This document shows positions 1-12,930 of a stretch of DNA of 64,000 bases, in pieces. The stretch's first letter is position 1; each line of letters starts with the position of its first letter. The DNA is from an uncultured Loktanella sp. (lineage in GTDB: Bacteria > Pseudomonadota > Alphaproteobacteria > Rhodobacterales > Rhodobacteraceae). Position numbers and translations under genes: made by a program. The stretch is from contig CAKZNT010000053.1 in assembly GCA_937132065.1 (NCBI GenBank), positions 1 through 64,000 of the forward strand. Direction: 5' to 3'. Below the pieces are notes generated by a model. It was not told where the DNA came from and did no database searches. It saw only the letters and a list, made by a program, of their open reading frames with translations.

Positions 1-1
1 T

Positions 2-790
2 CGAGACGAAATTACAAAAGATCCAATTAAAGGCATGACATTTGGAGATAATAGCTACATAAAGGTAGGTGCAAAGACGACGACCATATTTTACCAAGGC
101 GAAGATATAAACGGTGATGATGTTGAAGTACACATAAATATGTCCCACACTGAAACTGGCGCACAGTCTGGCGATAGTAATATATATCTAGAAAATAACA
201 AAGATCACTATTGGGGCCTTAAAATGATTGCGCCTCGCGGTGAAGTGACTGCAAAGCTTAAATCTGATGGTTCACTTAGCACTCTCAAGCTTAAGGGCTA
301 TCTAGACCATGGAAATGCAACCGCTAAAGTGCCTGATTTCTCTGATCATTGGTATCGGCTCATCTTCTTTTCAGACAAATGGACGATAGACCTGCATGAA
401 ATCACTCCCAAATTTATCTATGGTCTTAAAAAACCACAAATGCTTTATGTCGCAAAAAACAATCAGTCAATCGGAATGTTTGCAGATTGGGAGTATGTTG
501 ATGGAGGGTTTGTATCTCACCAACACTCCCCTTATGACCCGCCCAAGCGCTGGGAATTAAACCTTGAACGTGATGACCTGAAAATTAAAGGCACTGTAAC
601 GGTGGCAAAAGAAGTATTGGCGATTGATGTGCTTGGCTCAGTAAGCTGGGCCGTTCGAATGCTTGTAAAAGCATTTTACTCAAATGCATGGCAGCATTAT
701 TTTTTAGTCGATGTGGCGTTAACCATTGAGCATAACGGCATCACTGAACAGGTAAAGGGTACCGGCATGGCAACAGCTGAGTACTATTAA
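2..790 (+). CDS. hypothetical protein, 5' end outside window
   Basis: The frame is open to the left edge of the window: codons before the first ATG at 35 contain no stop, so the gene is probably cut by the window and the true start is unknown. The visible protein, about 260 residues, has no signal peptide or membrane span in view. It is rich in alternating hydrophobic and polar residues with many Trp and Tyr (WGLKMIAPRG, FADWEYVDGG), which suggests a beta-barrel or lipocalin/AttH-like fold. That is only an impression of composition. I do not recognise the family and assign no function. The next gene is convergent and ends 67 bases away. Confidence 0.6.
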   Translation, partial: RDEITKDPIKGMTFGDNSYIKVGAKTTTIFYQGEDINGDDVEVHINMSHTETGAQSGDSNIYLENNKDHYWGLKMIAPRGEVTAKLKSDGSLSTLKLKGYLDHGNATAKVPDFSDHWYRLIFFSDKWTIDLHEITPKFIYGLKKPQMLYVAKNNQSIGMFADWEYVDGGFVSHQHSPYDPPKRWELNLERDDLKIKGTVTVAKEVLAIDVLGSVSWAVRMLVKAFYSNAWQHYFLVDVALTIEHNGITEQVKGTGMATAEYY

Positions 791-857
791 TCGCTAACAG
801 CGCCCACCTTGGTCGAGGCCCTAACCCACCACATAGCGGTTAAGCATTACACCCTTA

Positions 858-1307
858 CTATGCTTCGCATAAAACAGCTTGAGTCACGCTTTTATAAGCT
901 GTCGGAGCTTGTATATTCGTTTGTTTTTTATCACAAAGTTCACTTTCGTTAAGTAGTTTGATTGCCCAGCTTTCATCTACACCATCCAAACCGATAGTCT
1001 TAAGCGGCTCAACTGTTGTAGACGTTCTATGCGTACTTTTAATATTCACGGAGCTGTCTAGCACTATTTCTGGGTCTTCTAAAGACGCTTCTAAATGCTT
1101 TTGGGCGACTAAAGTAGTGTTATTACTAAGTTCGTAGGTTTTATTAAACTCAGCGTATAGATCATTTGTTTCTTGGAGCGTTAATGACTCTTCACGCGCC
1201 TTGTTTGCAATATCAATAAGCATCTGTGTACGCTCAGCAAGCTTTCTGGACTGCTCATTACGGTAGCTTGATGTTGGGTACTCACTAAACGACTTGGCGA
1301 CTGACAT
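858..1307 (-). CDS. hypothetical protein, 149 aa
   Basis: The start ATG at 1307 is preceded on the minus strand by a good ribosome binding site (AAGGAGAG, about 6 bases upstream), which supports a real gene. The protein is polar and Ser/Thr/Glu-rich, with a probable helical N-terminal half (about residues 15-75). It has no transmembrane segment, signal peptide or recognisable motif. It stands alone, convergent with the preceding gene and with about 380 bases of empty sequence upstream. Function unknown. Confidence 0.6.
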   Translation of the reverse strand: MSVAKSFSEYPTSSYRNEQSRKLAERTQMLIDIANKAREESLTLQETNDLYAEFNKTYELSNNTTLVAQKHLEASLEDPEIVLDSSVNIKSTHRTSTTVEPLKTIGLDGVDESWAIKLLNESELCDKKQTNIQAPTAYKSVTQAVLCEA

Positions 1308-1690
1308 AATTCTCTCCTTGTAAATGCCTTCTTCGACTTCTATACGCAGGATTAACCTGCACAGCGTTCAAAGGTTTAATTTTCACATTAAAAACAGGGC
1401 AATTGAATCGATATGAGAGGAGGAAAACAAGGCTAGATGACACCTTATTCTTAAATATAAAACAGATACTTGCGTAAGCTGTTATGATTTATTCATCCCT
1501 GTTTATTATTGTAAATTTCGATAGCATCCTGACAGGACGCCATCATAAGGAGATCATCGCCAAGGGTCAATAGCCGTTTTCTTACATTTTAGTCTAAAAA
1601 ACAAACTATTTTTTGCTTGATCGGTGCGATGATAGTCATCAAATCGCTATTACTTCGTGACTTTTCATGCAGACGTGTAACCTCACATCT
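1308..1690. other. intergenic stretch, nothing recognised
   Basis: About 380 AT-rich bases between the start of the hypothetical gene at 1307 and the end of the HpcH/HpaI gene at 1691. It must hold the promoter of the 149-aa gene and the end of the upstream operon. I see no open frame, tRNA or strong hairpin with a T-run. Confidence 0.5.
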
Positions 1691-2572
1691 TCACGCCCCA
1701 AGTGCCTGAGCATTACGTAATAGCTCTTTAGCGCGCTCAACCACCGGTAAATCTATCATTTTACCCTTATACTCTACCGCACCTTTGCCTGCAGCAAGCC
1801 CCGCTTCAAAAGCTTGAATTAAGCCTTGCGCATTTTCAACTTCCATTGCAGTTGGTGTCAGTTCTTCATTGATGACAGCGACCTGTTTAGGGTGAATACA
1901 AAACGCCCCCACAAACCCTAGCTGCTTTGCAAATTGAATCGTTTTTCTAAACGCTTCCAAATCACTATAATCGGCAATCGAACCAGGAAACCCAAGCGGC
2001 ATAATATTTGCGCGGCGACAAGCCAGCGCAACCATTTGGTTCGGTAATAAGAGCGTTTGCGGCAAAGGCTGCATACCCGCTGTTGCAGAAAAGTCTTCTG
2101 ACCCCAATATCATCGCGACAACTCTTGGATCAGAACCCGCGAGAGCATCTAATTTTGGTAATGCGTCTACCGATTCAACCATTAGAATCAATGCGGTATG
2201 TCCCTCAGGTAAACCCTTGTCTTTTTCCAGCTGAGATATGCGTTGAGAAAAATCTCTTATTTGAGCCTCTGATTCTACTTTGGGCACCACGATTGCTTTA
2301 ACACTTTCATCTATAGAGGCTTCAATATCTAACAAAGCAAACCGAGCATCTAGATTAATACGTACCAAAGCATCCGCGCCCCCCTGACTCACAACCTTAG
2401 CGGCCGGAATAACACACTCTCTGGCTTCGGCTTTCTGAGCTAAAGGAACACTATCTTCTAAATCTAAAATATAAGCATCAGCACCCCGTGTATGGGCTTT
2501 TGCAACAAATTTTTCAATATGTACTGGAATAAAAAGCGCTGTACGCCAGCCTGGATAGCTTATTTTTTGCAT
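1691..2572 (-). CDS. HpcH/HpaI (CitE-like) CoA-ester lyase, probable citramalyl-CoA lyase
   Basis: A 293-residue TIM-barrel lyase. Visible family motifs are the metal-site block GADAYILDLEDSVP near the N-terminus, the VPKVES strand, the ILGSEDFSA block and CIHPKQV near the C-terminus. The family cleaves malyl-, beta-methylmalyl- or citramalyl-CoA to acetyl- or propionyl-CoA plus a keto acid. It looks closer to the compact CitE/Ccl type than to the longer Mcl1 of the ethylmalonyl-CoA pathway. Last gene of the minus-strand operon with the CoA-transferase and MaoC protein, which supports (S)-citramalyl-CoA cleavage to acetyl-CoA and pyruvate. I chose ATG 2572; a TTG at 2599 would add nine residues. 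Substrate is inferred from context. Confidence 0.8.
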   Translation of the reverse strand: MQKISYPGWRTALFIPVHIEKFVAKAHTRGADAYILDLEDSVPLAQKAEARECVIPAAKVVSQGGADALVRINLDARFALLDIEASIDESVKAIVVPKVESEAQIRDFSQRISQLEKDKGLPEGHTALILMVESVDALPKLDALAGSDPRVVAMILGSEDFSATAGMQPLPQTLLLPNQMVALACRRANIMPLGFPGSIADYSDLEAFRKTIQFAKQLGFVGAFCIHPKQVAVINEELTPTAMEVENAQGLIQAFEAGLAAGKGAVEYKGKMIDLPVVERAKELLRNAQALGA

Positions 2573-2611
2573 ATTTTTTCTCGATTTCAATATTACCAAG
2601 CAGTGCCTAGT

Positions 2612-3466
2612 TTACTCATCAGACAATTCGGCTTTCACAGTCATGCATAACGCATTATCTTGGTCTGCTGACCAAAGCGATAAAGCACTACCTTCTTGCT
2701 TACCCGAAACAGTAAAAGATTGATTGTCAAACGTCGGCCTGACAGCTCTAAATTTGAATTTCTTCAGCGTTTTATCTTTAATATTTTTTCGCTGTAACTC
2801 TAACAATAGCGTAACCAACAATGGGCCATGGACCACTAAAGCAGTATACAGCTCTTCTTCCGTCGCGTAGGTGCGGTCATAATGAATACGATGGCCATTA
2901 TAGGTTAGTGCTGAATATCGGAATAATAGCACGGGGTCAGGATTAACCATCTGTGAAAAATCATGCTCTTCAGGCGCATTTTTAGCCGGTGGAAGCCCTG
3001 CATCCGCAGCGGGTTGTTCACGATAAACAATATTCTGTATCTGACGAATACATAACACGCCATTCTGAGATATTTCATGCTTAACATTCACAAACACCAA
3101 TGTACCCGTACTACCCGCTTTCAGCTCTACCGATTCAATCGTCGATAGGCGTGTGGCTGCTTGGCCAATCACCAAAGCATTAAACAACTCCACTTCGCCT
3201 GCAGCCCACATTCTACGTGGTAACGGTACTGGCGGTAAAAACCCTCCTTTATCAGGATGGCCATCCAATCCTGTTGCCGAAGCTTTTGGTGTTGCCAAAA
3301 AGTACATCCACTCCCAAAAAGGAGGTAGTGCGTCACCCTTTTGAGGTATCACGTCATTGTCTAAAGCGGCAGCTAAAGCTTGTGCTTGAAATAAACTAAT
3401 ATCATCTTCTTTAGTTTCTTGCTTGCCGACCCACTCTTGTAAATAGGTAATATTAATATCGGTCAT
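2612..3466 (-). CDS. MaoC/FAS1-type dehydratase, mesaconyl-C4-CoA or itaconyl-CoA hydratase-like
   Basis: A 284-residue protein of the HTD2/FAS1-like dehydratase group, the family of mesaconyl-C4-CoA hydratase (Meh, 3-hydroxypropionate bicycle) and itaconyl-CoA hydratase (Ich, itaconate degradation). Visible marks are the PFWEWMYF segment, the LPPVPLPRRMWAAGEVE block typical of this subgroup, and a C-terminal hot-dog segment around LTYNGHRIHYDRTYAT with the His/Asp pair expected of the active site. Expected product is (S)-citramalyl-CoA. It sits between the CoA-transferase (86 bases upstream) and the lyase (ATG 39 bases downstream), all on one strand. The alternative is hydration of mesaconyl-C1-CoA, but that enzyme (Mch) is longer with two complete hot-dog domains. 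Confidence 0.8.
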   Translation of the reverse strand: MTDINITYLQEWVGKQETKEDDISLFQAQALAAALDNDVIPQKGDALPPFWEWMYFLATPKASATGLDGHPDKGGFLPPVPLPRRMWAAGEVELFNALVIGQAATRLSTIESVELKAGSTGTLVFVNVKHEISQNGVLCIRQIQNIVYREQPAADAGLPPAKNAPEEHDFSQMVNPDPVLLFRYSALTYNGHRIHYDRTYATEEELYTALVVHGPLLVTLLLELQRKNIKDKTLKKFKFRAVRPTFDNQSFTVSGKQEGSALSLWSADQDNALCMTVKAELSDE

Positions 3467-3552
3467 GTCTGTATCACTTGTTATTTTCAGGGTAATTGAG
3501 TGACTCGCGTACTGCCACTAACTTTCAGATTAATGAAGCCTTACCATTGTTA

Positions 3553-4773
3553 TCACGCCCCTTCAGGGCCGGCGATAATGCCATTATCATGTAATTTTCC
3601 AATTTCAGCCGAACTTAAACCCACCACATCAGCCAGTACTTCGTCTGTTTGCTCACCTAGTTTCGGCGCTGGTTTTGCTGGCATGCGCTCAAAAGCTGAA
3701 AAATCCCAAGGCGCTCCGGCTGCCATATAGGAACCAATACCTGGTTGCTTTATTTGAGTGAACATTGGGTTGTCTAAAGAACAATCAGGATTCGTTTCAA
3801 CCATTCCTTTCACCGTGTCATATTTACTCCAACACACACCGTTTTGATTAAATACCTTTTCAAGATCTGCGTAGGTTTGTTTTGAAATATACGCATGAAA
3901 ATACGCAGAGATTTCGTCTCGTGACTCAAAACGATCACCTTCTTTGGAAAAATCTCTACCTAATTTGACGGCTAAATCTTGCATGGCTTGTTCAGTGCCT
4001 GTCGCAATACAAAGTGATTTCCATTGGCGCTTTGTTAAGCCGATCACCATCACACGCGCATGATCTAAGGTCGTAAAGTCGCACCCATAGGCTCCGTAAA
4101 GATAATTTCCAAAGCGTTCACGTTCTTCACCCAATTGCGCTTCAGCAATAAAGCCTAAATGCCCCATCACGGCCATTGCCGCATCAGCCAAAGCAATTTT
4201 TGCATGCTGGCCTTCGCCCGTTCGGGTACGGTGTCGTTCTGCTGCGAGTAGCCCCAGCGCGGCCATTTGCCCTGTTACTAAGTCCCAAGCGGGTAATACA
4301 TGGTTAGCCGGTGTGTTACTGTCAGCAGGCCCTGTTAGGAATGGCAAACCAATAGAAGGGTTTACAGTATAATCAACGGCTGAACCACCATGACGATCGC
4401 CCTGCACCGTGAGTTGAATTAAGTCAGGACGCACTGCCGATAAGTCTTCGTAAGACAACCAACCCTTTGGAGGAAAATTGGTCAGCAACATCCCCGCTTC
4501 TTTCCCTGGCGCAGTGATTATTTGCTTAGCAAGCTCAGAGCCTTCAGGTGATCTAAAATTTATCGCGACAGAGCGTTTTGATTTATTAAGCCCTGCCCAA
4601 AATAAGCTAGCATTATCTTTGGTCACTGGCCAGCGCCGGTAGTCTAATCCACCACCGATGGCATCTATTCTTATCACATCAGCTCCTAACTGCGCTAATG
4701 TCATTCCGCCAAGCGGTGCGGCGACAAATGCTGACGCCTCGACAACACGCATACCTGATAATATAGCCTTCAT
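3553..4773 (-). CDS. CoA-transferase family III (mesaconyl/itaconate-type)
   Basis: A 406-residue family III (CaiB/BaiF/formyl-CoA transferase) enzyme. The N-terminal MRVVEASAFVAAPLGGMTLAQLGADVI block and the segment IALADAAMAVMGHLG are visible; the Asp in the latter aligns with the family's catalytic aspartate that carries the acyl-CoA anhydride. Length is normal. First gene of a three-gene minus-strand operon with a Meh/Ich-like hydratase and an HpcH lyase. That trio matches both the Mct-Meh-lyase branch of the 3-hydroxypropionate bicycle, where Mct moves CoA within mesaconyl-CoA from C1 to C4, and the Ict-Ich-Ccl itaconate pathway. The nearby mcd gene, which makes mesaconyl-C1-CoA, favours the first reading. 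Confidence 0.82.
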   Translation of the reverse strand: MKAILSGMRVVEASAFVAAPLGGMTLAQLGADVIRIDAIGGGLDYRRWPVTKDNASLFWAGLNKSKRSVAINFRSPEGSELAKQIITAPGKEAGMLLTNFPPKGWLSYEDLSAVRPDLIQLTVQGDRHGGSAVDYTVNPSIGLPFLTGPADSNTPANHVLPAWDLVTGQMAALGLLAAERHRTRTGEGQHAKIALADAAMAVMGHLGFIAEAQLGEERERFGNYLYGAYGCDFTTLDHARVMVIGLTKRQWKSLCIATGTEQAMQDLAVKLGRDFSKEGDRFESRDEISAYFHAYISKQTYADLEKVFNQNGVCWSKYDTVKGMVETNPDCSLDNPMFTQIKQPGIGSYMAAGAPWDFSAFERMPAKPAPKLGEQTDEVLADVVGLSSAEIGKLHDNGIIAGPEGA

Positions 4774-4942
4774 ATTTCTTTGCTCATTTTGATTAAATTT
4801 TGATCATCAATATTTACTAGCTAAACACTGTCCCTAATATTATAAATAGGATAAACCAGACATATTTTTAAATCTACCGATTGACCTTGGACGATGCGCT
4901 AAATTTGTTCTATTCTGCATAAAAAAATTGGTTTATTTTCCT
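4774..4942. promoter_or_regulatory. divergent promoter region
   Basis: 169 AT-rich bases between the divergent CoA-transferase operon and the oxidoreductase. It must contain both promoters. I see no clear regulator palindrome. Confidence 0.4.
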
Positions 4943-5965
4943 ATGCATGCACTCATTTTAACAGAAGCAAACAACCCAGATAGTTTAGTGTTAATGGACG
5001 TCCCCATGACGTCGCCTAAAGAGGGAGAGATACGTCTCAAATTAACTTCTGTTGGTTTAAACAGAGGGGATTTACTTTATACACAAAACCGCTACTTTAT
5101 AAAGCCTGATTCAGGCAGTCGACTAGGGTTTGAAGGCTCAGGTATTGTAGATGAAATCGGTCCCAATACGCACACCCAGCTAAAAATTGGTGATCGCGTT
5201 GGGTTGTCGCCTCTTGATTTTGACGTACAGACACAAGGCTGTCTTGCGGAGTATGGCTGCTACTCACTAAATGCCATTCTAAAAACCCCTTCCGAAATAC
5301 AAGATTCAGATAGTGGTGCGATCTGGATGGCATATTTTACCGCCTGGGGCGGGCTCGTTAATTCAGGCGAACTGGTTAAAGGAGAGGTCGTTGTCATTAC
5401 GGCCGCATCGAGCTCTGTTGGCATTGCTGCAATTCAAATTGCCAATATGATCGGGGCAATTCCTATCGCGACAACCACTTCAGAGGATAAAGCACGAGCA
5501 TTGCTTGAACTCGGCGCAAAGCATGTCATCGTCCTTCCGAATCACAAGACCGCAAATTTAAGTGACAATATTAATCATTATGTCAAAAGCATCATGTCGT
5601 TCACAGATAACCATGGAAGCGACTTAGTCTTTGATGCGGTTGCGGGTCCAATGAGCCATGCCTTAATAAAAGGTTCAAAGCGCGAAGGTAGACTCATCAT
5701 TCAAGGCATGCTAGACAGAATGCCGATGGATATTCATGCAGGCGTATTAATGAAACGCTTGTTAACGCTTAAAGGCTATACGGTTGATCAAACGCTCTCC
5801 CATAAACTAGAGAAAGCCCAAGCCGTCACAGCAATACAAAAAGGCTTTAATAACAATCAGTTAAAACCTGTCATTGCAAAGCATTTTAAATTGGATCACT
5901 TCAACCAAGCTTTTACTTACCTCAAATCAAACCAGCACCTAGGGAAAGTCGTGATAACACCCTAA
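4943..5965 (+). CDS. zinc-free MDR oxidoreductase, NADPH:quinone reductase-like
   Basis: A medium-chain dehydrogenase/reductase of 340 residues. The N-terminal GroES-like domain (LTSVGLNRGDLLYTQNRY) lacks the Cys/His ligands for catalytic or structural zinc. The Rossmann domain carries the nucleotide-binding stretch ITAASSSVGIAAIQIA. This is the quinone oxidoreductase/zeta-crystallin subgroup, which also holds enoyl-CoA reductases. It is too short to be crotonyl-CoA carboxylase/reductase (Ccr), which would fit the neighbouring pathway. I prefer ATG 4943 (MHALILTE) to the TTG at 4928. Divergent from the CoA-transferase operon. Substrate unknown. Confidence 0.75.
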   Translation: MHALILTEANNPDSLVLMDVPMTSPKEGEIRLKLTSVGLNRGDLLYTQNRYFIKPDSGSRLGFEGSGIVDEIGPNTHTQLKIGDRVGLSPLDFDVQTQGCLAEYGCYSLNAILKTPSEIQDSDSGAIWMAYFTAWGGLVNSGELVKGEVVVITAASSSVGIAAIQIANMIGAIPIATTTSEDKARALLELGAKHVIVLPNHKTANLSDNINHYVKSIMSFTDNHGSDLVFDAVAGPMSHALIKGSKREGRLIIQGMLDRMPMDIHAGVLMKRLLTLKGYTVDQTLSHKLEKAQAVTAIQKGFNNNQLKPVIAKHFKLDHFNQAFTYLKSNQHLGKVVITP

Positions 5966-6044
5966 CAATTGTATTTTTTTCATACAATGTATTTTTTAGA
6001 CTATACTTTTATAAACACCCATTATTAATAAGGTAAAATTCTGA

Positions 6045-7181
6045 ATGCACAGCTACAACGAACAACTTCTAGCACGTGCATTATTCGACCTTACTATGCG
6101 CGCTAAAAGCGGCATTTTAACTTATGCTTGTATTTGGCTCATTCTGGCTTTCAGTTATGAGATAAATACAAACCACCCTGCTTTTTTCATCATTAACTCC
6201 GCTACAATTTTCTTAATTTTTGTCTCGCGTGTCTGGCATTTTTTATTACTTAAGAAACAACCGCATAATAATGTATATAAAATGAGCTACTGGCTTGAAC
6301 TGACAATTCTTGCGGCTGCCGCTCACTGGGGAACCATGACCGCGTGGATCTTGTACAATGACAGTTTAAATGATTTACAAACAGTCATTCTAATTATTAC
6401 CCCCGCCATTGCACTAGGTGGCGCCTGTACACTCAGTATTTCATCAAAAATACGCATGCTTTACCCTACGCTTATGTTTATACCATTTATCGGCATACTG
6501 GTTTATCAAGCTGATACACAAAGTTTAAGTCTCGCTGCAATCACCAGTATTGGTCTGGTTTATATATTTACGGCAACCAAAGCAACACATGACGATTATT
6601 GGGCAGCTGTCACCAATCATATGGTCGCTGAAGAACGCGCTCAACTCATGGAAAAACTCAGCACAACAGACCCATTAACGCAGCTTAAAAACAGAATGTA
6701 TTTTGATAAAAAATTTGAAAAAGAATGGCTAAACTGCACCAACCTAAAACGTCCTATCAGCCTGGTCATGCTCGATTTAGATTTTTTTAAAAAAATTAAT
6801 GATAATTATGGGCATGTTTTCGGTGATGAATGTTTAAAAGCGGTGGCCTCAACCATTAGTCAAATTGCCACTCGGCCGACTGATTGCGTTGCACGTTATG
6901 GCGGAGAAGAATTCGTTATCCTACTCCCCAACACCGATGACGAAACAACAAAAATGCTCGCTTTAAGGATGATTAACGCAATTGCAAGCTTAGTACTTAA
7001 TTACCAAGGTGAAAAAATTAGTTTGACCTGCTCCATCGGTGGTTCCACTATTACGCCTCAAATTAAAGCTAACCAAACCTCTCTGCTGAAAGCTGCAGAC
7101 TCTGCGCTCTACCAAGCAAAAGATGCTGGCAGAAATTGTTACCGCTCAAATACAACCCACGCAATAGCAGAGCATTCATAA
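6045..7181 (+). CDS. membrane diguanylate cyclase (GGDEF)
   Basis: A 378-residue protein with a hydrophobic N-terminal half (about residues 20-185, five or six predicted membrane spans) and a C-terminal GGDEF domain that makes cyclic di-GMP from two GTP. The active-site loop reads YGGEEF, a functional variant. An RPTD motif lies exactly five residues before it and matches the RxxD inhibitory site, so product inhibition is expected. The DPLTQLKNR start of the domain and the DLDFFKKINDNYGH metal/substrate block are present. A short linker after the membrane part (around AAVTNHMVAEERAQLMEKL) probably forms the signalling helix. Start ATG 6045 has AAGGT upstream. The sensed signal is unknown. Confidence 0.9.
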   Translation: MHSYNEQLLARALFDLTMRAKSGILTYACIWLILAFSYEINTNHPAFFIINSATIFLIFVSRVWHFLLLKKQPHNNVYKMSYWLELTILAAAAHWGTMTAWILYNDSLNDLQTVILIITPAIALGGACTLSISSKIRMLYPTLMFIPFIGILVYQADTQSLSLAAITSIGLVYIFTATKATHDDYWAAVTNHMVAEERAQLMEKLSTTDPLTQLKNRMYFDKKFEKEWLNCTNLKRPISLVMLDLDFFKKINDNYGHVFGDECLKAVASTISQIATRPTDCVARYGGEEFVILLPNTDDETTKMLALRMINAIASLVLNYQGEKISLTCSIGGSTITPQIKANQTSLLKAADSALYQAKDAGRNCYRSNTTHAIAEHS

Positions 7182-7364
7182 AAGCCCAAGATATCGACTA
7201 AATATGCTGCTACTTTAACCTTTGGAATGGTCTCTAGGTCATTTTTCACGCTCTACATCACATCAAGTCTCTTTTTTTAAGATTTACTTTCCTATAACAT
7301 GCCTTGTTAATAACGTTAATATACCTTTTAACTCTAATGCATAAATTCGCTAGGAGAGACCACA

Positions 7365-9035
7365 TTGTCTCAAAATTCTTCAGATAGTATTTCGCAAGCA
7401 CGCACTGTTGTCGCACAAGCTCAAGGCGCTATTGATTCAGCTCTTAGTCACATTAAAAGTTTATGCATGAATGAGTCAGGGCGACTATCAGGTAGTAAAT
7501 TAGACGAGTATCAACTTGTGTCTTATGATTTAGCCTATTCTTCAGCTGAGTTGGCCGCAGCGCGCGTTTTTTGTGATTTTGCAGAGAATACAACGACAAC
7601 AGGTGAATTAGAAGAACAACTGGCACTGATGTTCTGTGCCGAAATGGTGCATAACACGAAAGGCCGTTTAGCAGCGCGTCGAAATGAATATGGACTTTCA
7701 CCAGAAGCCTTTACAACCGCTTTTGAAAGTCAAGCAACGCAAGATTTTGTTCAAACCTACCAACAAACATCCCAACTCGTTGACTTAGGTAAACTCATGC
7801 TTGAACAAGATGGGCATACGGTCGATGCTCAACTTGATGAAGATAAGCAAATTATGCGTGAGTCATTTCAACGCTTTGCAACCGACGTCGTCATGCCAAA
7901 AGCTGAGCACATTCACCGTGATGACTTAATGATTCCGGATGAAATACTAAAGCCTCTTGTTGAAATGGGCTGTTTTGGTTTATCGATCCCTGAAGAATAT
8001 GACGGCCTATTAGTCGACGGAAAAGAAGATAACCTTGGAATGATCGTTGTAACAGAAGAACTTTCTCGTGGTTCTCTAGCAGCAGCCGGGAGTTTGATTA
8101 CTCGACCTGAAATTTTATCTCGCGCACTTTTAGCCGGTGGCACCGCTGAACAAAAGCAACATTGGCTGCCTAAATTGGCATGGGCAGACCCCTTTTGCGC
8201 TGTCGCAATCACTGAACCTGATTTTGGTTCAGACGTTGCAGGCATGAAATTAAAAGCCGAAAAAGTCGACGGCGGTTGGGTGCTTAATGGTGCAAAAACA
8301 TGGTGTACCTTTGGCGGCAAAGCCGGTGTACTTCTAACGCTTGCAAGAACAAACCCTGAGCCCGGTTTAGGTCACAAAGGCTTAAGTATGTTTTTAGTCG
8401 AAAAGCCCTCGACTGACGGCCATGAGTTCAGCCATAAATTAGAAAATGGCGGCACTATATCGGGTAAAGCAATTCCGACAATCGGTTATCGAGGCATGCA
8501 TTCGTTTGATGTTTTCTTTGACAATGTATTTGTTCCCGACAGTCATTTACTAGGTGGTGAAGCAGGCTTAGGCAAAGGCTTTTACTACACAATGGCAGGC
8601 TTCTCAGGGGGACGTATCCAAACAGCGGCCCGCGCAAATGGCGTCATGCAGGCAGCTTTTGAGAAAGCGATCAGTTACTCAAAAGAGCGTAAAGTGTTTG
8701 GCGAGCCTTTGGGCAACTACCAACTTACACTTGTTAAACTCGCACGTATGGCAACACTTATGACCGCTTCTCGCCAGTTTACGTATGCTGTTGGGCGACT
8801 AATGGATGAAGGTAAAGGGCAAATGGAAGCGAGTTTAGTTAAACTTTTTGCGTGTAAATCATCAGAATGGCTAACACGTGAAGCAATGCAAATACATGGT
8901 GGCATGGGGTATGCTGAAGAGTCTGCCGTTAGTCGTTACTGGATTGATGCCCGAGTATTGTCAATATTTGAAGGTGCAGAAGAAACATTAGCCCTTAAAG
9001 TTATCGCTCGCTCATTGCTTGAAAATGCAGCATAA
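7365..9035 (+). CDS. mcd: methylsuccinyl-CoA dehydrogenase
   Basis: Flavin-dependent acyl-CoA dehydrogenase of 556 residues. It oxidises (2S)-methylsuccinyl-CoA to mesaconyl-C1-CoA in the ethylmalonyl-CoA pathway. The length and the extra N-terminal helical domain of about 150 residues are specific to Mcd; ordinary acyl-CoA dehydrogenases have about 380. Also present are the subfamily stretch ISGKAIPTIGYRGMHSFDV, the FAD/substrate block AITEPDFGSDVAGMKL, and the C-terminal ARVLSIFEGAEE with the expected catalytic glutamate in IFEG. The start is TTG 7365 behind a strong GGAGAG (7353-7358, six bases away); no nearby ATG fits as well. The ecm gene follows 33 bases later on the same strand, as pathway partners. 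Confidence 0.9.
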   Translation: MSQNSSDSISQARTVVAQAQGAIDSALSHIKSLCMNESGRLSGSKLDEYQLVSYDLAYSSAELAAARVFCDFAENTTTTGELEEQLALMFCAEMVHNTKGRLAARRNEYGLSPEAFTTAFESQATQDFVQTYQQTSQLVDLGKLMLEQDGHTVDAQLDEDKQIMRESFQRFATDVVMPKAEHIHRDDLMIPDEILKPLVEMGCFGLSIPEEYDGLLVDGKEDNLGMIVVTEELSRGSLAAAGSLITRPEILSRALLAGGTAEQKQHWLPKLAWADPFCAVAITEPDFGSDVAGMKLKAEKVDGGWVLNGAKTWCTFGGKAGVLLTLARTNPEPGLGHKGLSMFLVEKPSTDGHEFSHKLENGGTISGKAIPTIGYRGMHSFDVFFDNVFVPDSHLLGGEAGLGKGFYYTMAGFSGGRIQTAARANGVMQAAFEKAISYSKERKVFGEPLGNYQLTLVKLARMATLMTASRQFTYAVGRLMDEGKGQMEASLVKLFACKSSEWLTREAMQIHGGMGYAEESAVSRYWIDARVLSIFEGAEETLALKVIARSLLENAA

Positions 9036-9068
9036 ATCTAGCGTAAATAGTCACTTGGAGTCACCGGA

Positions 9069-10268
9069 ATGAGCGACAAGAAAAAAGCACACCACATATA
9101 TGATAAAGAAGGCGAAGTAGGTCAAGATCGTCCTTGGATTTTCCGAACTTATGCAGGGCATACCAATGTTTGGGCCTCCAATGAGCTTTATCGAAATAAC
9201 TTAGCCAAAGGCCAAACAGGGCTAAGTATTGCAATGGATTTACCCACTCAGTGTGGTTACAGTTCAGATCATGATATTGCAAAACCTGAGATTGGTAAGG
9301 TAGGCGTGCCCATTAACTCGCTTGATGACATGCTAGTGCTTTTCGACAACATTCCACTAGATGAAATGAACACATCTATGACCATTAATGGCACCTCAAT
9401 GTGGTTATTGTCGCTATATGTAGCGATGGCTGAAGAACGCGGTGTTGATATTAGTAAACTCAAAGGCACAACACAAAACGATTTAATTAAAGAGTATTTA
9501 GCACGCGGCACCTATATTTTTCCACCTGAAGACTCCATTCGCATTATCGTTGATATGTATGAATATTGTTTACATAATATTCCTTCATGGAATGCTTCAA
9601 ACATTTGTTCATATCACCTACAAGAAGCCGGTGCGACCCCTGTTCAAGAGCTTGCATTCGCGTTGACCACCGCAATAACTATTCTCGATGCCATCAAAGA
9701 ACGAGATTGTTTTAATGAAGAAGAGTTTGAACGCTGTGTCGGCCGTATTTCTTACTTTGTGAATGCAGGCATGCGCTTCGTAGAAGAGACCTGCAAGATG
9801 CGCGCATTTGGTGAAATGTGGGATGAAATCACTTCTGAGCGTTACGGTGTAAAAAATGCCAAGTACCGACGTTTCCGCTACGGCGTACAAGTAAATTCGC
9901 TGGGTTTAACAGAAGAACAGCCTGAAAATAATGCATGGCGAATATTGATCGAAACACTAGGGGTTACACTGAGCCGAAATGCACGCTGTCGCGCGCTTCA
10001 ATTACCCGCATGGAATGAAGCCTTATCACTCCCCCGCCCTTGGGACCAACAATGGTCATTGCGTTTACAACAAGTCATGGCTTACGAAACAGATTTACTT
10101 GAATACCCTGATTTGTTTGAAGGCTCACTTGTGATTGAGTCAAAAGTTAAAGACTTGAAAGAACAAGCTTTTGCTGAAATCACTAAAATATTAGAGATGG
10201 GCGGAGGTGTTGAAGCCATCAAAACCGGCTATATGAAGTCTTCGTTAGTTGCCTCACAAGGTGACCGT
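9069..10268 (+). pseudogene. ecm: ethylmalonyl-CoA mutase, N-terminal two-thirds only
   Basis: The first 400 residues match the substrate-binding TIM-barrel of methylmalonyl-CoA mutase relatives, most like ethylmalonyl-CoA mutase: WIFRTYAGHTNVWASNELYR, GLSIAMDLPTQCGYSSDHD, TMTINGTSMWLL, TTQNDLIKEYLARGTY, GVQVNSLGLTEEQPENN, and LPAWNEALSLPRPWDQQWS. Ecm converts (2R)-ethylmalonyl-CoA to (2S)-methylsuccinyl-CoA, the substrate of the upstream Mcd. The C-terminal part, including the whole cobalamin-binding domain with its DxHxxG motif, is absent. At 10269 the frame continues into unrelated, GC-richer sequence (EngB then YchF). Whatever its origin, the product could not bind B12. The start ATG has TTGGAG upstream. 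Confidence 0.88.
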
Positions 10269-10445
10269 ATGAGCAAGACCCTGCCCTTTCCGATTGCGGA
10301 CGGCTTTTCACCCGACGAACTGGAACAGGGACGTTTGCTTTTCGCAGGGCCGTGCACCTTTCTGAAGGGCGTTGTCGCTATGGACGGCCTGCCGCCTGCG
10401 GATCGGCTGGAAGTGTGTTTCGCGGGCCGCTCCAACGTTGGAAAA
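10269..10445 (+). pseudogene. engB: EngB (YihA) GTPase N-terminal fragment
   Basis: From the ATG at 10269 (in frame with the mutase upstream) about 59 codons match the N-terminus of the ribosome-biogenesis GTPase EngB of Rhodobacteraceae: LPFPIADGF, RLLFAGPCTFLKGVVAMDGL, PPADRLEVCFAGRSNVGKS. The last stretch includes the start of the Walker A loop. Right after it, where EngB should continue with SLINALTG, the sequence becomes YchF (TLFNALTQT). The rest of EngB is missing. Base composition is of the GC-rich alphaproteobacterial part. EngB is usually essential, so a complete copy should exist elsewhere if this is a real genome. Confidence 0.8.
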
Positions 10446-11498
10446 TCCACTCTGTTTAATGCATTGACCCAAACAGCCTCTGCAGAATCTGCAAACTACC
10501 CCTTTTGCACCATTGAACCCAATGTGGGCGATGTGGCTGTGCCCGATGCACGGCTCGATAAACTGGCGGCAATCGCTGGCTCCAAATCCATCATCCCGAC
10601 CCGCATGACATTCGTCGACATCGCGGGGCTTGTGAAGGGCGCTTCCAAAGGGGAAGGCCTCGGCAACCAGTTCCTTGCAAACATCCGCGAATGTGACGCC
10701 ATCGCCCATGTGGTGCGCTGCTTTGAAGACGACGACATCACCCACGTCGAGGGGCGCGTTGATCCTGTCGAGGATGCAGAAGTCATCGAAACCGAGCTGA
10801 TGCTTGCCGACATGGAATCCATTGAAAAGCGTCTGCAAGGTCTGCAACGCAAGGTGCGTGGCGGCGACAAAGAGGCGGGCGATCAGGAACGGCTCCTCAA
10901 GGCGGCTCTGGATGCGCTCAACAACGGCAAACCTGCGCGCACCGTGAGTGTCGATGCAGATGACGCAAAGCAATGGAAAATGCTGCAACTGTTGACATCC
11001 AAACCCGTGCTTTACGTCTGTAACGTCGAAGAAGACAGCGCAGGAGCAGGGAACGCCCAATCCAATCGCGTTGGCGAAATGGCCGCGACCCAAGGCAATT
11101 CGCACGTCGTGATCTCGGCGCGCATCGAAGAAGAAATCAGCCAGCTAGACGCGGAAGAAGCAGAAATGTTCCTTGGCGAGATGGGCCTCGAAGAGCCAGG
11201 TCTCGACCGGCTGATCCGCGCGGGCTACGAACTCCTGCACCTGCAAACCTATTTCACCGTCGGGCCAAAAGAGGCGCGCGCGTGGACGATCAAAGCAGGG
11301 ACATCGGCCCCGCAAGCCGCCGGCGTGATTCACGGCGACTTTGAACGCGGCTTCATCCGCGCCGAAACCATCGGCTACAACGACTTCGTGACGCTCGGCG
11401 GCGAAGGTCCGTCAAAAGAGGCGGGCAAAATGAAAGCCGAAGGCAAAGCCTATATCGTCAAAGACGGCGACGTGATGCACTTCTTGTTTAATACATAA
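10434..11498 (+). CDS. ychF: YchF/OLA1 family ATPase, extreme N-terminus replaced by EngB
   Basis: About 354 residues of the universally conserved Obg-family ATPase YchF, which binds ribosomes and is linked to stress responses. Visible: Walker A NVGKSTLFNALTQT, the ANYPFCTIEPNVG switch region, FVDIAGLVKGASKGEGLGNQFL (G3 and the family glycines), CNVEED in place of the GTP-specific NKxD (the mark of ATP preference), a coiled-coil insertion around MESIEKRLQGLQRKV, and a C-terminal TGS domain (FTVGPKEARAW to DGDVMHFLF). Only the first 10 or so residues are lost; they are replaced in frame by EngB sequence, and the crossover lies in the shared P-loop coding stretch, about 10434-10470. No normal YchF start remains, so the reading depends on the chimeric ORF that begins at 9069 or 10269. 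Confidence 0.85.
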   Translation, partial: NVGKSTLFNALTQTASAESANYPFCTIEPNVGDVAVPDARLDKLAAIAGSKSIIPTRMTFVDIAGLVKGASKGEGLGNQFLANIRECDAIAHVVRCFEDDDITHVEGRVDPVEDAEVIETELMLADMESIEKRLQGLQRKVRGGDKEAGDQERLLKAALDALNNGKPARTVSVDADDAKQWKMLQLLTSKPVLYVCNVEEDSAGAGNAQSNRVGEMAATQGNSHVVISARIEEEISQLDAEEAEMFLGEMGLEEPGLDRLIRAGYELLHLQTYFTVGPKEARAWTIKAGTSAPQAAGVIHGDFERGFIRAETIGYNDFVTLGGEGPSKEAGKMKAEGKAYIVKDGDVMHFLFNT

Positions 11499-11504
11499 GC
11501 TGGC

Positions 11505-11529
11505 GGCGGGCCTTGGTTTTTGGCCCGCC
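11505..11529 (+). terminator. hairpin after ychF
   Basis: A perfect 8-bp stem (GGCGGGCC at 11505-11512, GGCCCGCC at 11522-11529) with a T-rich loop starts a few bases after the ychF stop. There is no downstream T-run, so termination is likely but not classical. Confidence 0.5.
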
Positions 11530-11551
11530 AGTTCTAAAATTCGCCGCAAAA

Positions 11552-11584
11552 CCGGTGCACGTCCGGTGCACGCGCCGTGCACGC
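11552..11584. repeat. three 11-bp tandem units centred on GTGCAC
   Basis: The units CCGGTGCACGT, CCGGTGCACGC and GCCGTGCACGC follow each other without gaps. The palindrome GTGCAC therefore occurs at 11555, 11566 and 11577, one DNA helical turn apart. They lie about 70 bases before tRNA-Ser. They could be a protein-binding array or a chance low-complexity tract. Confidence 0.6.
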
Positions 11585-11653
11585 CGCGTGTATCGCACAT
11601 TTTCCACAAATTACGCCTTGCCCCTCCCAAAACCTGCCGCTAAACGGGTCAGC

Positions 11654-11743
11654 GGAGACGTGGCCGAGTGGTCGAAGGCGCTCCCCTGCTAAGGGAGTAA
11701 CGGGGTAACTCGTTCGAGGGTTCGAATCCCTTCGTCTCCGCCA
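11654..11743 (+). tRNA. tRNA-Ser(GCT)
   Basis: A class II tRNA of 90 bases with encoded CCA. The acceptor stem GGAGACG pairs with CGTCTCC, followed by the discriminator G and CCA. The D-arm begins TGGCCGAGTGG. The anticodon stem-loop CTCCC-CTGCTAA-GGGAG gives anticodon GCT (serine AGC/AGU). A long variable arm (around TAACGGGGTAACTC) and the T-arm GAGGGTTCGAATCCCTT are present. Serine tRNAs are common integration sites, but I found no repeated 3' end further on. Confidence 0.95.
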
Positions 11744-12059
11744 CCATACCTTTGATCTTTGTTCTCTGAGAGACACTGCAAAGCATGGTTTTGGCAACTT
11801 GCACGGCTATCGGAGTCTTGAAATCTGGCTGAAAGATTGGGCAGAGATCAATATGCCAGTCAATCAGATCAACCGCTCGGTCGCAGCCATCAATCTTCGC
11901 GAAACAGGATCACTGGCGGTTGTTGTAAGCTCCTCTCTAGGGCCGCAGAACAGACGAAGTTGGGCACGAGTAAAGGGCTGATGTCTATGCACTTCCCTGA
12001 AAGTTGAGCGCGGCGATAATCTGACGCGGAACCTCGCAGACTTTACGCCAGATCGTTGA
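11744..12059. other. stretch without intact gene
   Basis: About 315 bases after tRNA-Ser. A 60-codon frame exists here but resembles no protein family and has no convincing ribosome binding site. Probably degraded sequence at the head of the pseudogene-rich zone. Confidence 0.4.
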
Positions 12060-12407
12060 TTTATCATTGGGCGGACCCGAGACGCGAATAGCGAGGTCAC
12101 AATCCTCCTCAACGATGAGGGCGTCTATGATATGCCCGATCTTGCCAAGCGCACGGAATCGATGGCCGCGGTTCTTTCGGCGCACCGTGCGCAGCTTCCT
12201 GGTTCGCCAGTCTACGGTTTTGGCTATGCAAACGGCGCGAACATCCTTGCATCGGTTGTGCTGCAACACCCCGACCTGTTTGACCGCATCGGCCTGCTGC
12301 ACCCGTTGATCCCGTGGGCGCCCGCGGCTGTGCCTGCCCTTGCAGGCAAGCGTGTTTTGATCACTGCGGGCAAACGCGACCCGATTTGTCCATTCGTGCG
12401 CGCCTAG
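12060..12407 (+). pseudogene. alpha/beta hydrolase (phospholipase/carboxylesterase type) fragment
   Basis: The frame reads FIIGRTRDANSEVT, then EGVYDMPDLAKRTESMA, then GFGYANGANILASVVLQHPDLFD and GKRVLITAGKRDPICPF. The G-Y-A-N-G elbow replaces the usual nucleophile box GxSxG with asparagine; several relatives annotated this way also have GYSNGA, so Ser to Ala may mark decay. The catalytic Asp region (ITAGKRDPICP) is present, but the last segment with the catalytic His is missing, and a stop follows six codons after PICPF. An in-frame TGA precedes the fragment at 12054. Both ends are therefore lost. Confidence 0.7.
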
Positions 12408-12492
12408 GCGAAAAGCATAGCGCAGACTTTGCCGATGTAATTCAGTGATAGATTTCACCTAAAAACCTTCACTTGGCCTTTGGAGCCAATTC

Positions 12493-12930
12493 ATGAACTG
12501 GAACCCGACACAAGACCCAGAACGCCCCGCATCCGGCACCAATAGCATCGAGACACTGATTATCCCGCGCGCGCGTGACATTGGCGGATTTGATGTGGGC
12601 CGCGCCTTACCTTCGCCTGAACGGCAGATGGTTGGGCCGTTTATCGTCTTTGACCAGATGGTCTTTCGGCCCGGTGACAAGTTGACCATTAAAGCGGGGC
12701 CACGTGGCGCGCGATTGATGGCGCTTGGCGGGGCAACAATGAATGAGAGCCGCTATATCTGGTGGAATTTTGTTTCTTCCTCAAAGGATAGGATCGAGCA
12801 AGCCAAAGAAGATTGGAAGGCCGCTGATTGGCAAGACGGCCCCTTCAAGTTGCCCAAAGGCGACGATGCAGAATTCATCCCGATCACCCCTGAACTGGAC
12901 CGGACACGGCCACGCTTGAGGACGAAATGA
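12493..12930 (+). pseudogene. pirin family protein with large internal deletion
   Basis: Residues 1-55 match the start of a bacterial pirin (IETLIIPRARDIGGFDVGRALPS, RQMVGPFIVFDQM). Residues 56-145 match its C-terminus (VFRPGDKLTIKAGPRGARLMALGG, IWWNFVSSSKDRIEQAKEDW, GDDAEFIPI). About 140-150 residues are missing between them, including the HPHPH metal-binding motif and both complete cupin cores. A normal pirin has about 290-310 residues. The junction at 12658-12662 keeps the frame, so the ORF looks intact by length but cannot fold as a pirin. Confidence 0.85.

What the first reader, a model, noticed from the sequence alone, without database searches (positions are those of the whole stretch)
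1691..10268. Possible hybrid ethylmalonyl-CoA / citramalyl-CoA route
Mcd and Ecm make mesaconyl-C1-CoA from ethylmalonyl-CoA. The adjacent operon encodes a family III CoA-transferase, a Meh/Ich-type hydratase and a CitE-like lyase, which as in the 3-hydroxypropionate bicycle would turn mesaconyl-C1-CoA into mesaconyl-C4-CoA, citramalyl-CoA, then pyruvate plus acetyl-CoA. This avoids the usual products glyoxylate and propionyl-CoA of the ethylmalonyl-CoA pathway and would make it an acetyl-CoA to pyruvate assimilation route. The combination next to one another in a gammaproteobacterial background is unusual as far as I know.
Basis: inference. Interest (0 to 1): 0.75.

Follow-up and report, generated by a model that had tools for sequence, protein, structure and literature searches.

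The report
Hybrid acetyl-CoA-to-pyruvate gene cluster
Marine bacteria related to the oil-eater Oleiphilus carry one gene cluster that appears to join two known pathways into a route from acetyl-CoA and carbon dioxide to pyruvate; the copy in this window is a cut-off fragment stuck by mis-assembly onto DNA of another bacterium.

Summary
The genes are real, but the window is a chimeric contig. Bases 1 to about 10,277 are Oleiphilus-like DNA (GC 0.427). They run into a piece of engB and then ychF of a Rhodobacteraceae-like organism (GC 0.555), so ecm is cut after about 400 of 673 codons.

Relatives show the intact locus. In 9 of 61 sampled genomes of the family, ccl-meh-mct lies divergent to qor-mcd-ecm-meaB-ccr; a tenth has parts of it on two contigs. 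All 10 ccr genomes carry mct, and 0 of 49 without mct carry ccr. G013, whose length equals that of the cultured type strain O. messinensis ME102, also has an epimerase gene directly after ccr. A mesaconyl-C1-CoA hydratase (PF19315) hit is missing in 9 of the 10. In 8 of 10 the cluster's Ccl is the only strong CitE-like hit. The normal exit to glyoxylate plus propionyl-CoA therefore looks closed, and Mct-Meh-Ccl to pyruvate plus acetyl-CoA is the best reading.

Against it as the sole acetate route: isocitrate lyase is also present (full length in 9 of 10). No enzyme was assayed. In the papers I could search, this route appears only as an artificial design (PMC10521678).

The parts
1691..2572 (-). 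ccl: CitE-like (S)-citramalyl-CoA lyase candidate, 293 aa
   Evidence: PF03328 112.7 bits; TIGR01588 citE 180 and RipC_Ccl 143 bits, both below cut-off; best PDB sequence 4l9y malyl-CoA lyase 127 bits. The seven Mg/catalytic residues named in PMC3832036 line up (counted by hand; motifs found).
2612..3466 (-). meh: mesaconyl-C4-CoA hydratase candidate, 284 aa
   Evidence: 8huc/8khg 213/212 bits; PF13452 23 bits; no NCBIfam family; follows mct in all 10 ccr+mct loci
3553..4773 (-). [quoted passage not shown]
   Evidence: TIGR04253 575 bits; 8apq/7xkg 555/554 bits; Arg47 and the catalytic Asp conserved
4928..5965 (+). qor-like medium-chain reductase, role unknown, present in all 10 relatives' loci
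   Evidence: TIGR02824 184 bits, below cut-off; 45-68% identity in 10 of 10 ccr+mct loci
6045..7181 (+). GGDEF diguanylate cyclase; an insertion in the locus in some species only
   Evidence: PF00990; found between qor and mcd in 3 of the 9 full loci (G002, G003, G021)
7365..9035 (+). mcd: (2S)-methylsuccinyl-CoA dehydrogenase, 556 aa
   Evidence: 8ciw 625 bits
9069..10277 (+). ecm, first ~400 codons of ethylmalonyl-CoA mutase; cut by the contig join
   Evidence: 96% identity to residues 1-400 of the 673-aa Ecm of L005; alignment to L005 ends at 10277
10269..10277 (.). join 1, ATGAGCAAG, shared by ecm and the engB start
10269..10466 (+). EngB N-terminal fragment of another organism, running into YchF at the shared P-loop stretch (about 10422-10466, join 2)
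   Evidence: residues ~404-491 hit separate 217-223 aa EngB frames in the same-genus genomes of G000; residue-level alignment
10422..11498 (+). YchF of the Rhodobacteraceae-like organism, lacking its own first codons
   Evidence: TIGR00092 476 bits; 83-88% to separate YchF genes in 5 same-genus genomes

Best explanation
The first ~10.3 kb is part of a conserved Oleiphilaceae locus for a hybrid route. Crotonyl-CoA (from two acetyl-CoA, or from beta-oxidation) is reductively carboxylated by Ccr to ethylmalonyl-CoA. Epimerase and Ecm (helped by MeaB) give methylsuccinyl-C1-CoA, and Mcd gives mesaconyl-C1-CoA. Mct moves CoA from C1 to C4, Meh hydrates mesaconyl-C4-CoA to (S)-citramalyl-CoA, and Ccl splits this to pyruvate and acetyl-CoA. 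Net: acetyl-CoA + CO2 + 2 NADPH + oxidised ETF gives pyruvate + CoA + 2 NADP + reduced ETF. Shown: the genes, their linkage and co-occurrence, and the lack of Mch hits in 9 of 10 genomes. Inferred: each enzyme's substrate, flux direction and physiological use (probably growth on fatty acids and alkanes, beside the glyoxylate shunt).
For: Full order ccl-meh-mct / qor-mcd-ecm-meaB-ccr in 9 of the 12 mct genomes found among 61. ccr over cut-off in 10 of 61, all 10 among the 12 mct genomes (Fisher p 7e-10, not corrected for kinship). PF19315: no hit in 9 of 10. Epimerase TIGR03081 142.7 bits (cut-off 114.95) directly after ccr in G013. Mct of the 11 ccr-linked loci is one clade, 100/99. Identities of Mct and Ccr run together across 9 loci (r 0.85; Mct-Ecm 0.93). 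Stoichiometry balances and equals that printed for the designed pathway in PMC10521678. The regiochemistry needs exactly an Mct between Mcd and Meh: the C1 ester must become a C4 ester before a citramalyl-CoA split (established chemistry, recalled).
Against: No activity data. Mct scores under the curated TIGR04253 cut-off (725), as did every other hit seen, and Arg314' of the R. castenholzii enzyme is Gly here. Meh and Ccl could be itaconate-type enzymes. Isocitrate lyase coexists: full length in 9 of the 10 genomes, a 199-aa frame in G003. G003 has a possible split Mch beside a second lyase; G045 has a second strong lyase hit. Thiolase, acetoacetyl-CoA reductase and dehydratase were not looked for, and the epimerase was seen only in G013. 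Genomes G001-G003 were found through meh, so the family count is not a blind sample.
Confidence: 0.78

Rival explanations
1. Two unrelated modules that are merely neighbours: a canonical ethylmalonyl-CoA pathway, and an itaconate or methylsuccinate degradation operon (transferase, hydratase, lyase).
For: The best solved relatives of the hydratase include itaconyl-CoA hydratase, and Ccl scores on RipC. On a Paraburkholderia plasmid an mcd-like and a mct-like gene sit with a MaoC, a CoA ester lyase, ETF and a further CoA-transferase gene and no ccr, as expected for a methylsuccinate operon.
Against: Without a PF19315 hit in 9 of 10 genomes the canonical pathway has no mesaconyl-C1-CoA hydratase. 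No intermolecular CoA-transferase lies in the locus to activate free itaconate or methylsuccinate. ccr never occurs without mct in the 61 genomes.
Confidence: 0.1
2. The canonical ethylmalonyl-CoA pathway with an unrecognised Mch: Ccl cleaves beta-methylmalyl-CoA, and Mct/Meh only interconvert or salvage mesaconyl-CoA.
For: CitE-like lyases are promiscuous: the R. sphaeroides malyl-CoA lyase also forms citramalyl-CoA (passages of PMC3832036). G003 has a split PF19315 pair beside a second lyase.
Against: The pair was found in 1 of the 10 genomes only. The control works: PF19315 finds a hit in G000, which has its own ecm and ccr. Mct-Meh-Ccl is kept in all 10.
Confidence: 0.08
3. The gene combination in the window is itself an assembly artefact.
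For: The contig is chimeric at 10.27-10.47 kb, and its far end also looks chimeric.
Against: The join lies downstream of every gene of the finding except the end of ecm. The same order occurs in 9 other genomes, four of them on contigs over 4 Mb.
Confidence: 0.02

Closest known systems
Ethylmalonyl-CoA pathway (e.g. Cereibacter/Rhodobacter sphaeroides)
   Same: ccr, epi, ecm, mcd: crotonyl-CoA to mesaconyl-C1-CoA
   Different: Mesaconyl-C1-CoA is hydrated by Mch and split to glyoxylate + propionyl-CoA there; here a PF19315 hit is missing in 9 of 10 genomes and Mct-Meh-Ccl is kept
3-hydroxypropionate bicycle, second half (Chloroflexus/Roseiflexus Mct, Meh, Mcl)
   Same: Mct, and the hydration and cleavage of mesaconyl-C4-CoA to acetyl-CoA + pyruvate
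   Different: There mesaconyl-C1-CoA comes from glyoxylate + propionyl-CoA; here from Ccr-Ecm-Mcd. Gammaproteobacterial 'partial bicycles' such as Kentron are reported without an ethylmalonyl-CoA pathway (passages of PMC6593406)
Reductive citramalyl/ethylmalonyl-CoA pathway (PMC10521678, artificial design)
   Same: Same reactions and net equation, printed with -39+/-9 (unit header not seen)
   Different: Designed on paper from parts of several pathways; here the genes for most steps lie together in natural genomes
Itaconate/methylsuccinate degradation clusters (Ict-Ich-Ccl; PMC12290011)
   Same: Hydratase and lyase families, end products acetyl-CoA + pyruvate
   Different: They start from free acids with an intermolecular CoA-transferase, and the dehydrogenase of PMC12290011 works on the C4 ester; here the transferase is of the C1-C4 intramolecular kind
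THETA cycle (synthetic; recalled, not found in the library)
   Same: As recalled, uses Ccr-Ecm-Mcd-Mct-Meh-Ccl
   Different: Synthetic; nothing read

Membership tests
[quoted passage not shown]
   555/554 bits against 99 for the next
[quoted passage not shown]
   575 bits. No hit reached it; the highest of those was 620.6
[quoted passage not shown] castenholzii numbering) | tested here: inconclusive
   Asp and Arg47 conserved, Arg314' replaced by Gly (hand-counted)
[quoted passage not shown]
   needs an assay
Ethylmalonyl-CoA pathway, upper part | ccr, ecm, mcd present | tested here: met
   Nine relatives have all three in the locus; in the window ccr is missing and ecm is cut
Ethylmalonyl-CoA pathway, canonical lower part | Mch (PF19315) | tested here: not met
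   0 hits in 9 of 10 ccr+mct genomes; split pair in G003
Ethylmalonyl-CoA pathway, canonical lower part | Separate Mcl1 | tested here: inconclusive
   8 of 10 have one strong PF03328 hit only, the cluster's Ccl. Six of these 8 also have weak hits of 20-28 bits in frames of 765-782 aa; G003 and G045 have a second strong hit
[quoted passage not shown]
   not searched
Itaconate degradation cluster | Intermolecular itaconate CoA-transferase in the operon | tested here: not met
   The only CoA-transferase of the locus is Mct-like; genomes were not searched for others
Itaconate degradation cluster | RipC_Ccl equivalog (NF038242) | tested here: not met
   143 bits, cut-off 375
CitE-like lyase with full active site | Mg/catalytic residues incl. 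C-terminal Asp (Glu in the thioesterase group) | tested here: met
   All seven residues line up with 4l9y (hand-counted; motifs)

The most novel reading that the evidence does not exclude
A natural, operon-encoded and oxygen-tolerant equivalent of pyruvate synthase: Oleiphilaceae turn acetyl-CoA + CO2 into pyruvate through ethylmalonyl-CoA and citramalyl-CoA. This is a third fate of mesaconyl-CoA in acetate assimilation, running beside the glyoxylate shunt as a CO2-fixing, NADPH-consuming way to use highly reduced alkane carbon. It would be the natural form of a pathway published as artificial.
Probability: 0.6. Interest if true: 0.82.

Novelty: new variant of a known kind. Interest (0 to 1): 0.7.

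Why it matters
If true, a hybrid that synthetic biologists designed on paper (PMC10521678) already exists in nature, in a cultured strain where it can be tested. It would give an acetyl-CoA carboxylation to pyruvate without oxygen-sensitive ferredoxin enzymes, supply co-evolved enzymes for synthetic CO2 fixation, and revise the carbon budget of marine alkane degraders. It also warns that ccr + ecm + mcd in a genome does not prove the glyoxylate + propionyl-CoA exit.

Tried and rejected
Rejected: an Ecm-GTPase fusion protein at 9069-11498 (the three parts are separate genes in the five same-genus genomes of G000). Rejected: a sole replacement of the glyoxylate shunt (isocitrate lyase in 12 of 12 mct genomes, partial in G003; the earlier PF00463 search had missed it in G003 and hit only weakly in G001 and G002). 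Led nowhere: near DNA search of window 1-10270 in plasmids, no match; the search for the THETA cycle, 0 papers. Arg314' of Mct proved not diagnostic. Mcd tree: the ccr-linked group has weak support (75/99, 72% of bootstrap trees), and the Azospirillum row is a long branch. Outside the family: of the six other class-level mct genomes (7 of 369 with G003), none has ecm or ccr in the 16.6-19.9 kb fetched; their whole genomes were not searched for ccr. Of 23 plasmid records with a Mct homologue, the flanks of six were viewed. Not done: structure prediction; searches for thiolase, reductase, dehydratase, malate synthase, or the epimerase beyond two loci's flanks.

Papers. Passages only: PMC8307300, PMC12290011, PMC6593406, PMC3832036, PMC8956781, PMC5847120. 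Passages and section 13: PMC10521678. Outline with abstract and section 14: PMC9196870. All others: listings only. Zarzycki 2009 PNAS is not held and is cited from recall.

Full report
What is in the window. The CoA-transferase is Mct-like, the hydratase Ich/Meh-like, the lyase CitE-like with its active-site residues in place, and the dehydrogenase matches (2S)-methylsuccinyl-CoA dehydrogenase. Purifying selection acts on six of the genes.

The contig is chimeric. ORF 9069-11498 reads Ecm 1-400, then EngB, then YchF. In all five same-genus genomes of G000, Ecm, EngB and YchF are separate frames in different places. The Ecm homology to L005 ends at 10277, on a 9-base stretch that also begins the EngB piece, and EngB passes into YchF at the shared P-loop. 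GC changes from 0.427 to 0.555. The bin holds a second ychF at C79. The part after the join resembles Paracoccus, Sulfitobacter and similar alphaproteobacteria, and the bin's own Ecm is 77-80% identical to Paracoccus and Ruegeria homologues.

The intact locus. A scan of one genome per species with the hydratase gave three loci, named Hahellaceae (L003) and uncultured Oleiphilus (L004, L005). L005 shares 84-96% protein identity with the window's pathway genes and continues with full ecm, meaB-like and ccr. In a draw of 61 genomes of that family (G003 is its centre and G001, G002 are in it), Mct falls into two clear classes: 12 genomes at 552-575 bits, all other hits at 124 or less. Nine of the 12 have the whole divergent locus. 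G005 has mct-meh-ccl and qor at a contig start and ccr on another contig; its mcd and ecm were not looked for. G015 and G061 have mct with an mcd-like gene in a different cluster and no ccr. ccr occurs in 10 of 61, all among the 12 (Fisher p 7e-10 without correction for kinship).

The exit. PF19315 (mesaconyl-CoA hydratase) has no hit in 9 of the 10 ccr+mct genomes, nor in G015 and G061. It does hit G000, which has its own ecm and ccr, so the search works on a genome of the canonical kind. The tenth, G003, has two adjacent halves at 72 and 70 bits beside a second lyase, an acyl-CoA ligase and an acyl-CoA dehydrogenase: a result against the simple picture in the window's nearest relative. PF03328 has one strong hit, the cluster's Ccl, in 8 of 10; weak second hits of 20-28 bits in frames of 765-782 aa occur in six of these 8; G003 and G045 have a second strong hit.

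A cultured carrier. G013's single contig is 6,379,281 bases, the genome size printed for Oleiphilus messinensis ME102 (PMC5847120). It carries the full locus and, directly after ccr, an epimerase over the curated cut-off. In that paper the words glyoxylate, acetyl-CoA, crotonyl and mesaconyl have 0 occurrences.

How it most likely works. Ccr, epimerase, Ecm/MeaB, Mcd, Mct, Meh, Ccl in that order; net acetyl-CoA + CO2 + 2 NADPH + ETF to pyruvate + CoA + 2 NADP + ETFH2, or crotonyl-CoA + CO2 + NADPH + ETF to acetyl-CoA + pyruvate + NADP + ETFH2 when beta-oxidation supplies crotonyl-CoA. The same net equation, with ubiquinone for ETF and bicarbonate for CO2, is printed for a designed module in PMC10521678 with -39+/-9. 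Gene linkage is shown; substrates and direction are inferred. Because isocitrate lyase is also present, I place the route beside the glyoxylate shunt, perhaps as a CO2-fixing electron sink on reduced substrates.

Where the module came from. Mct and Mcd homologues also sit together without ccr in other proteobacteria: a Paraburkholderia plasmid with MaoC and CoA ester lyase, Variovorax, pAKD34 and Azospirillum, and three class-level genomes, G206, G274 and G375. The ccr-linked Mct proteins form one clade, 100/99. A methylsuccinyl-CoA-degrading module joined once to Ccr-Ecm fits this, but the tree does not prove it.

Known or new. Ten paper searches over open-licence PMC papers gave no report, in the listings and passages I saw, of this combination in nature. 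'Oleiphilus' with 'ethylmalonyl-CoA' gave 0 papers. Subscription papers and preprints were out of reach, so prior mention (for example in Zarzycki 2009, not held) cannot be excluded. I call it a new variant of a known kind: known enzymes, new natural combination.

Noticed in passing
window 10269-10466; G000:C79:65-1141: Two-step contig join (ecm/engB/ychF) at short shared stretches, and a second ychF in the same bin: a mis-assembled or contaminated contig.
   Followed up: yes
L138 4518-5686 (G000:C53 about 114.5-115.7 kb): Near the other end of the contig a LysRS-like ORF stops early and overlaps an unrelated ORF on the other strand; this may be another join.
   Followed up: no
window 4928-5965: A qor-like reductase heads the mcd-ecm operon or faces mct in all 10 ccr+mct loci; its role in the route is unexplained.
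   Followed up: partly
window 6045-7181: A diguanylate cyclase gene sits inside the locus in the window and 3 of 9 full relatives only.
   Followed up: partly
L067, L070 (G061, G015); L111, L113, L114: mct-like plus mcd-like genes without ccr, in G061 beside a LysR gene, TRAP-type binding protein, thiolase-like and other CoA-transferase genes: perhaps intramolecular CoA transfer in another diacid pathway.
   Followed up: partly
L115 (Paraburkholderia sp. D15 plasmid) 2581-12535: MaoC, CoA ester lyase, ETF, mcd-like, mct-like and acetyl-CoA hydrolase/transferase genes with a LysR gene nearby: probable C1-type methylsuccinate degradation.
   Followed up: no
L058 7949-10061 (G003): Split mesaconyl-CoA-hydratase-like pair beside a lyase, acyl-CoA ligase and acyl-CoA dehydrogenase.
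   Followed up: partly
L074 15523-18622 (G013): An AMP-binding enzyme gene lies in two pieces around a transposase gene right after the epimerase.
   Followed up: no
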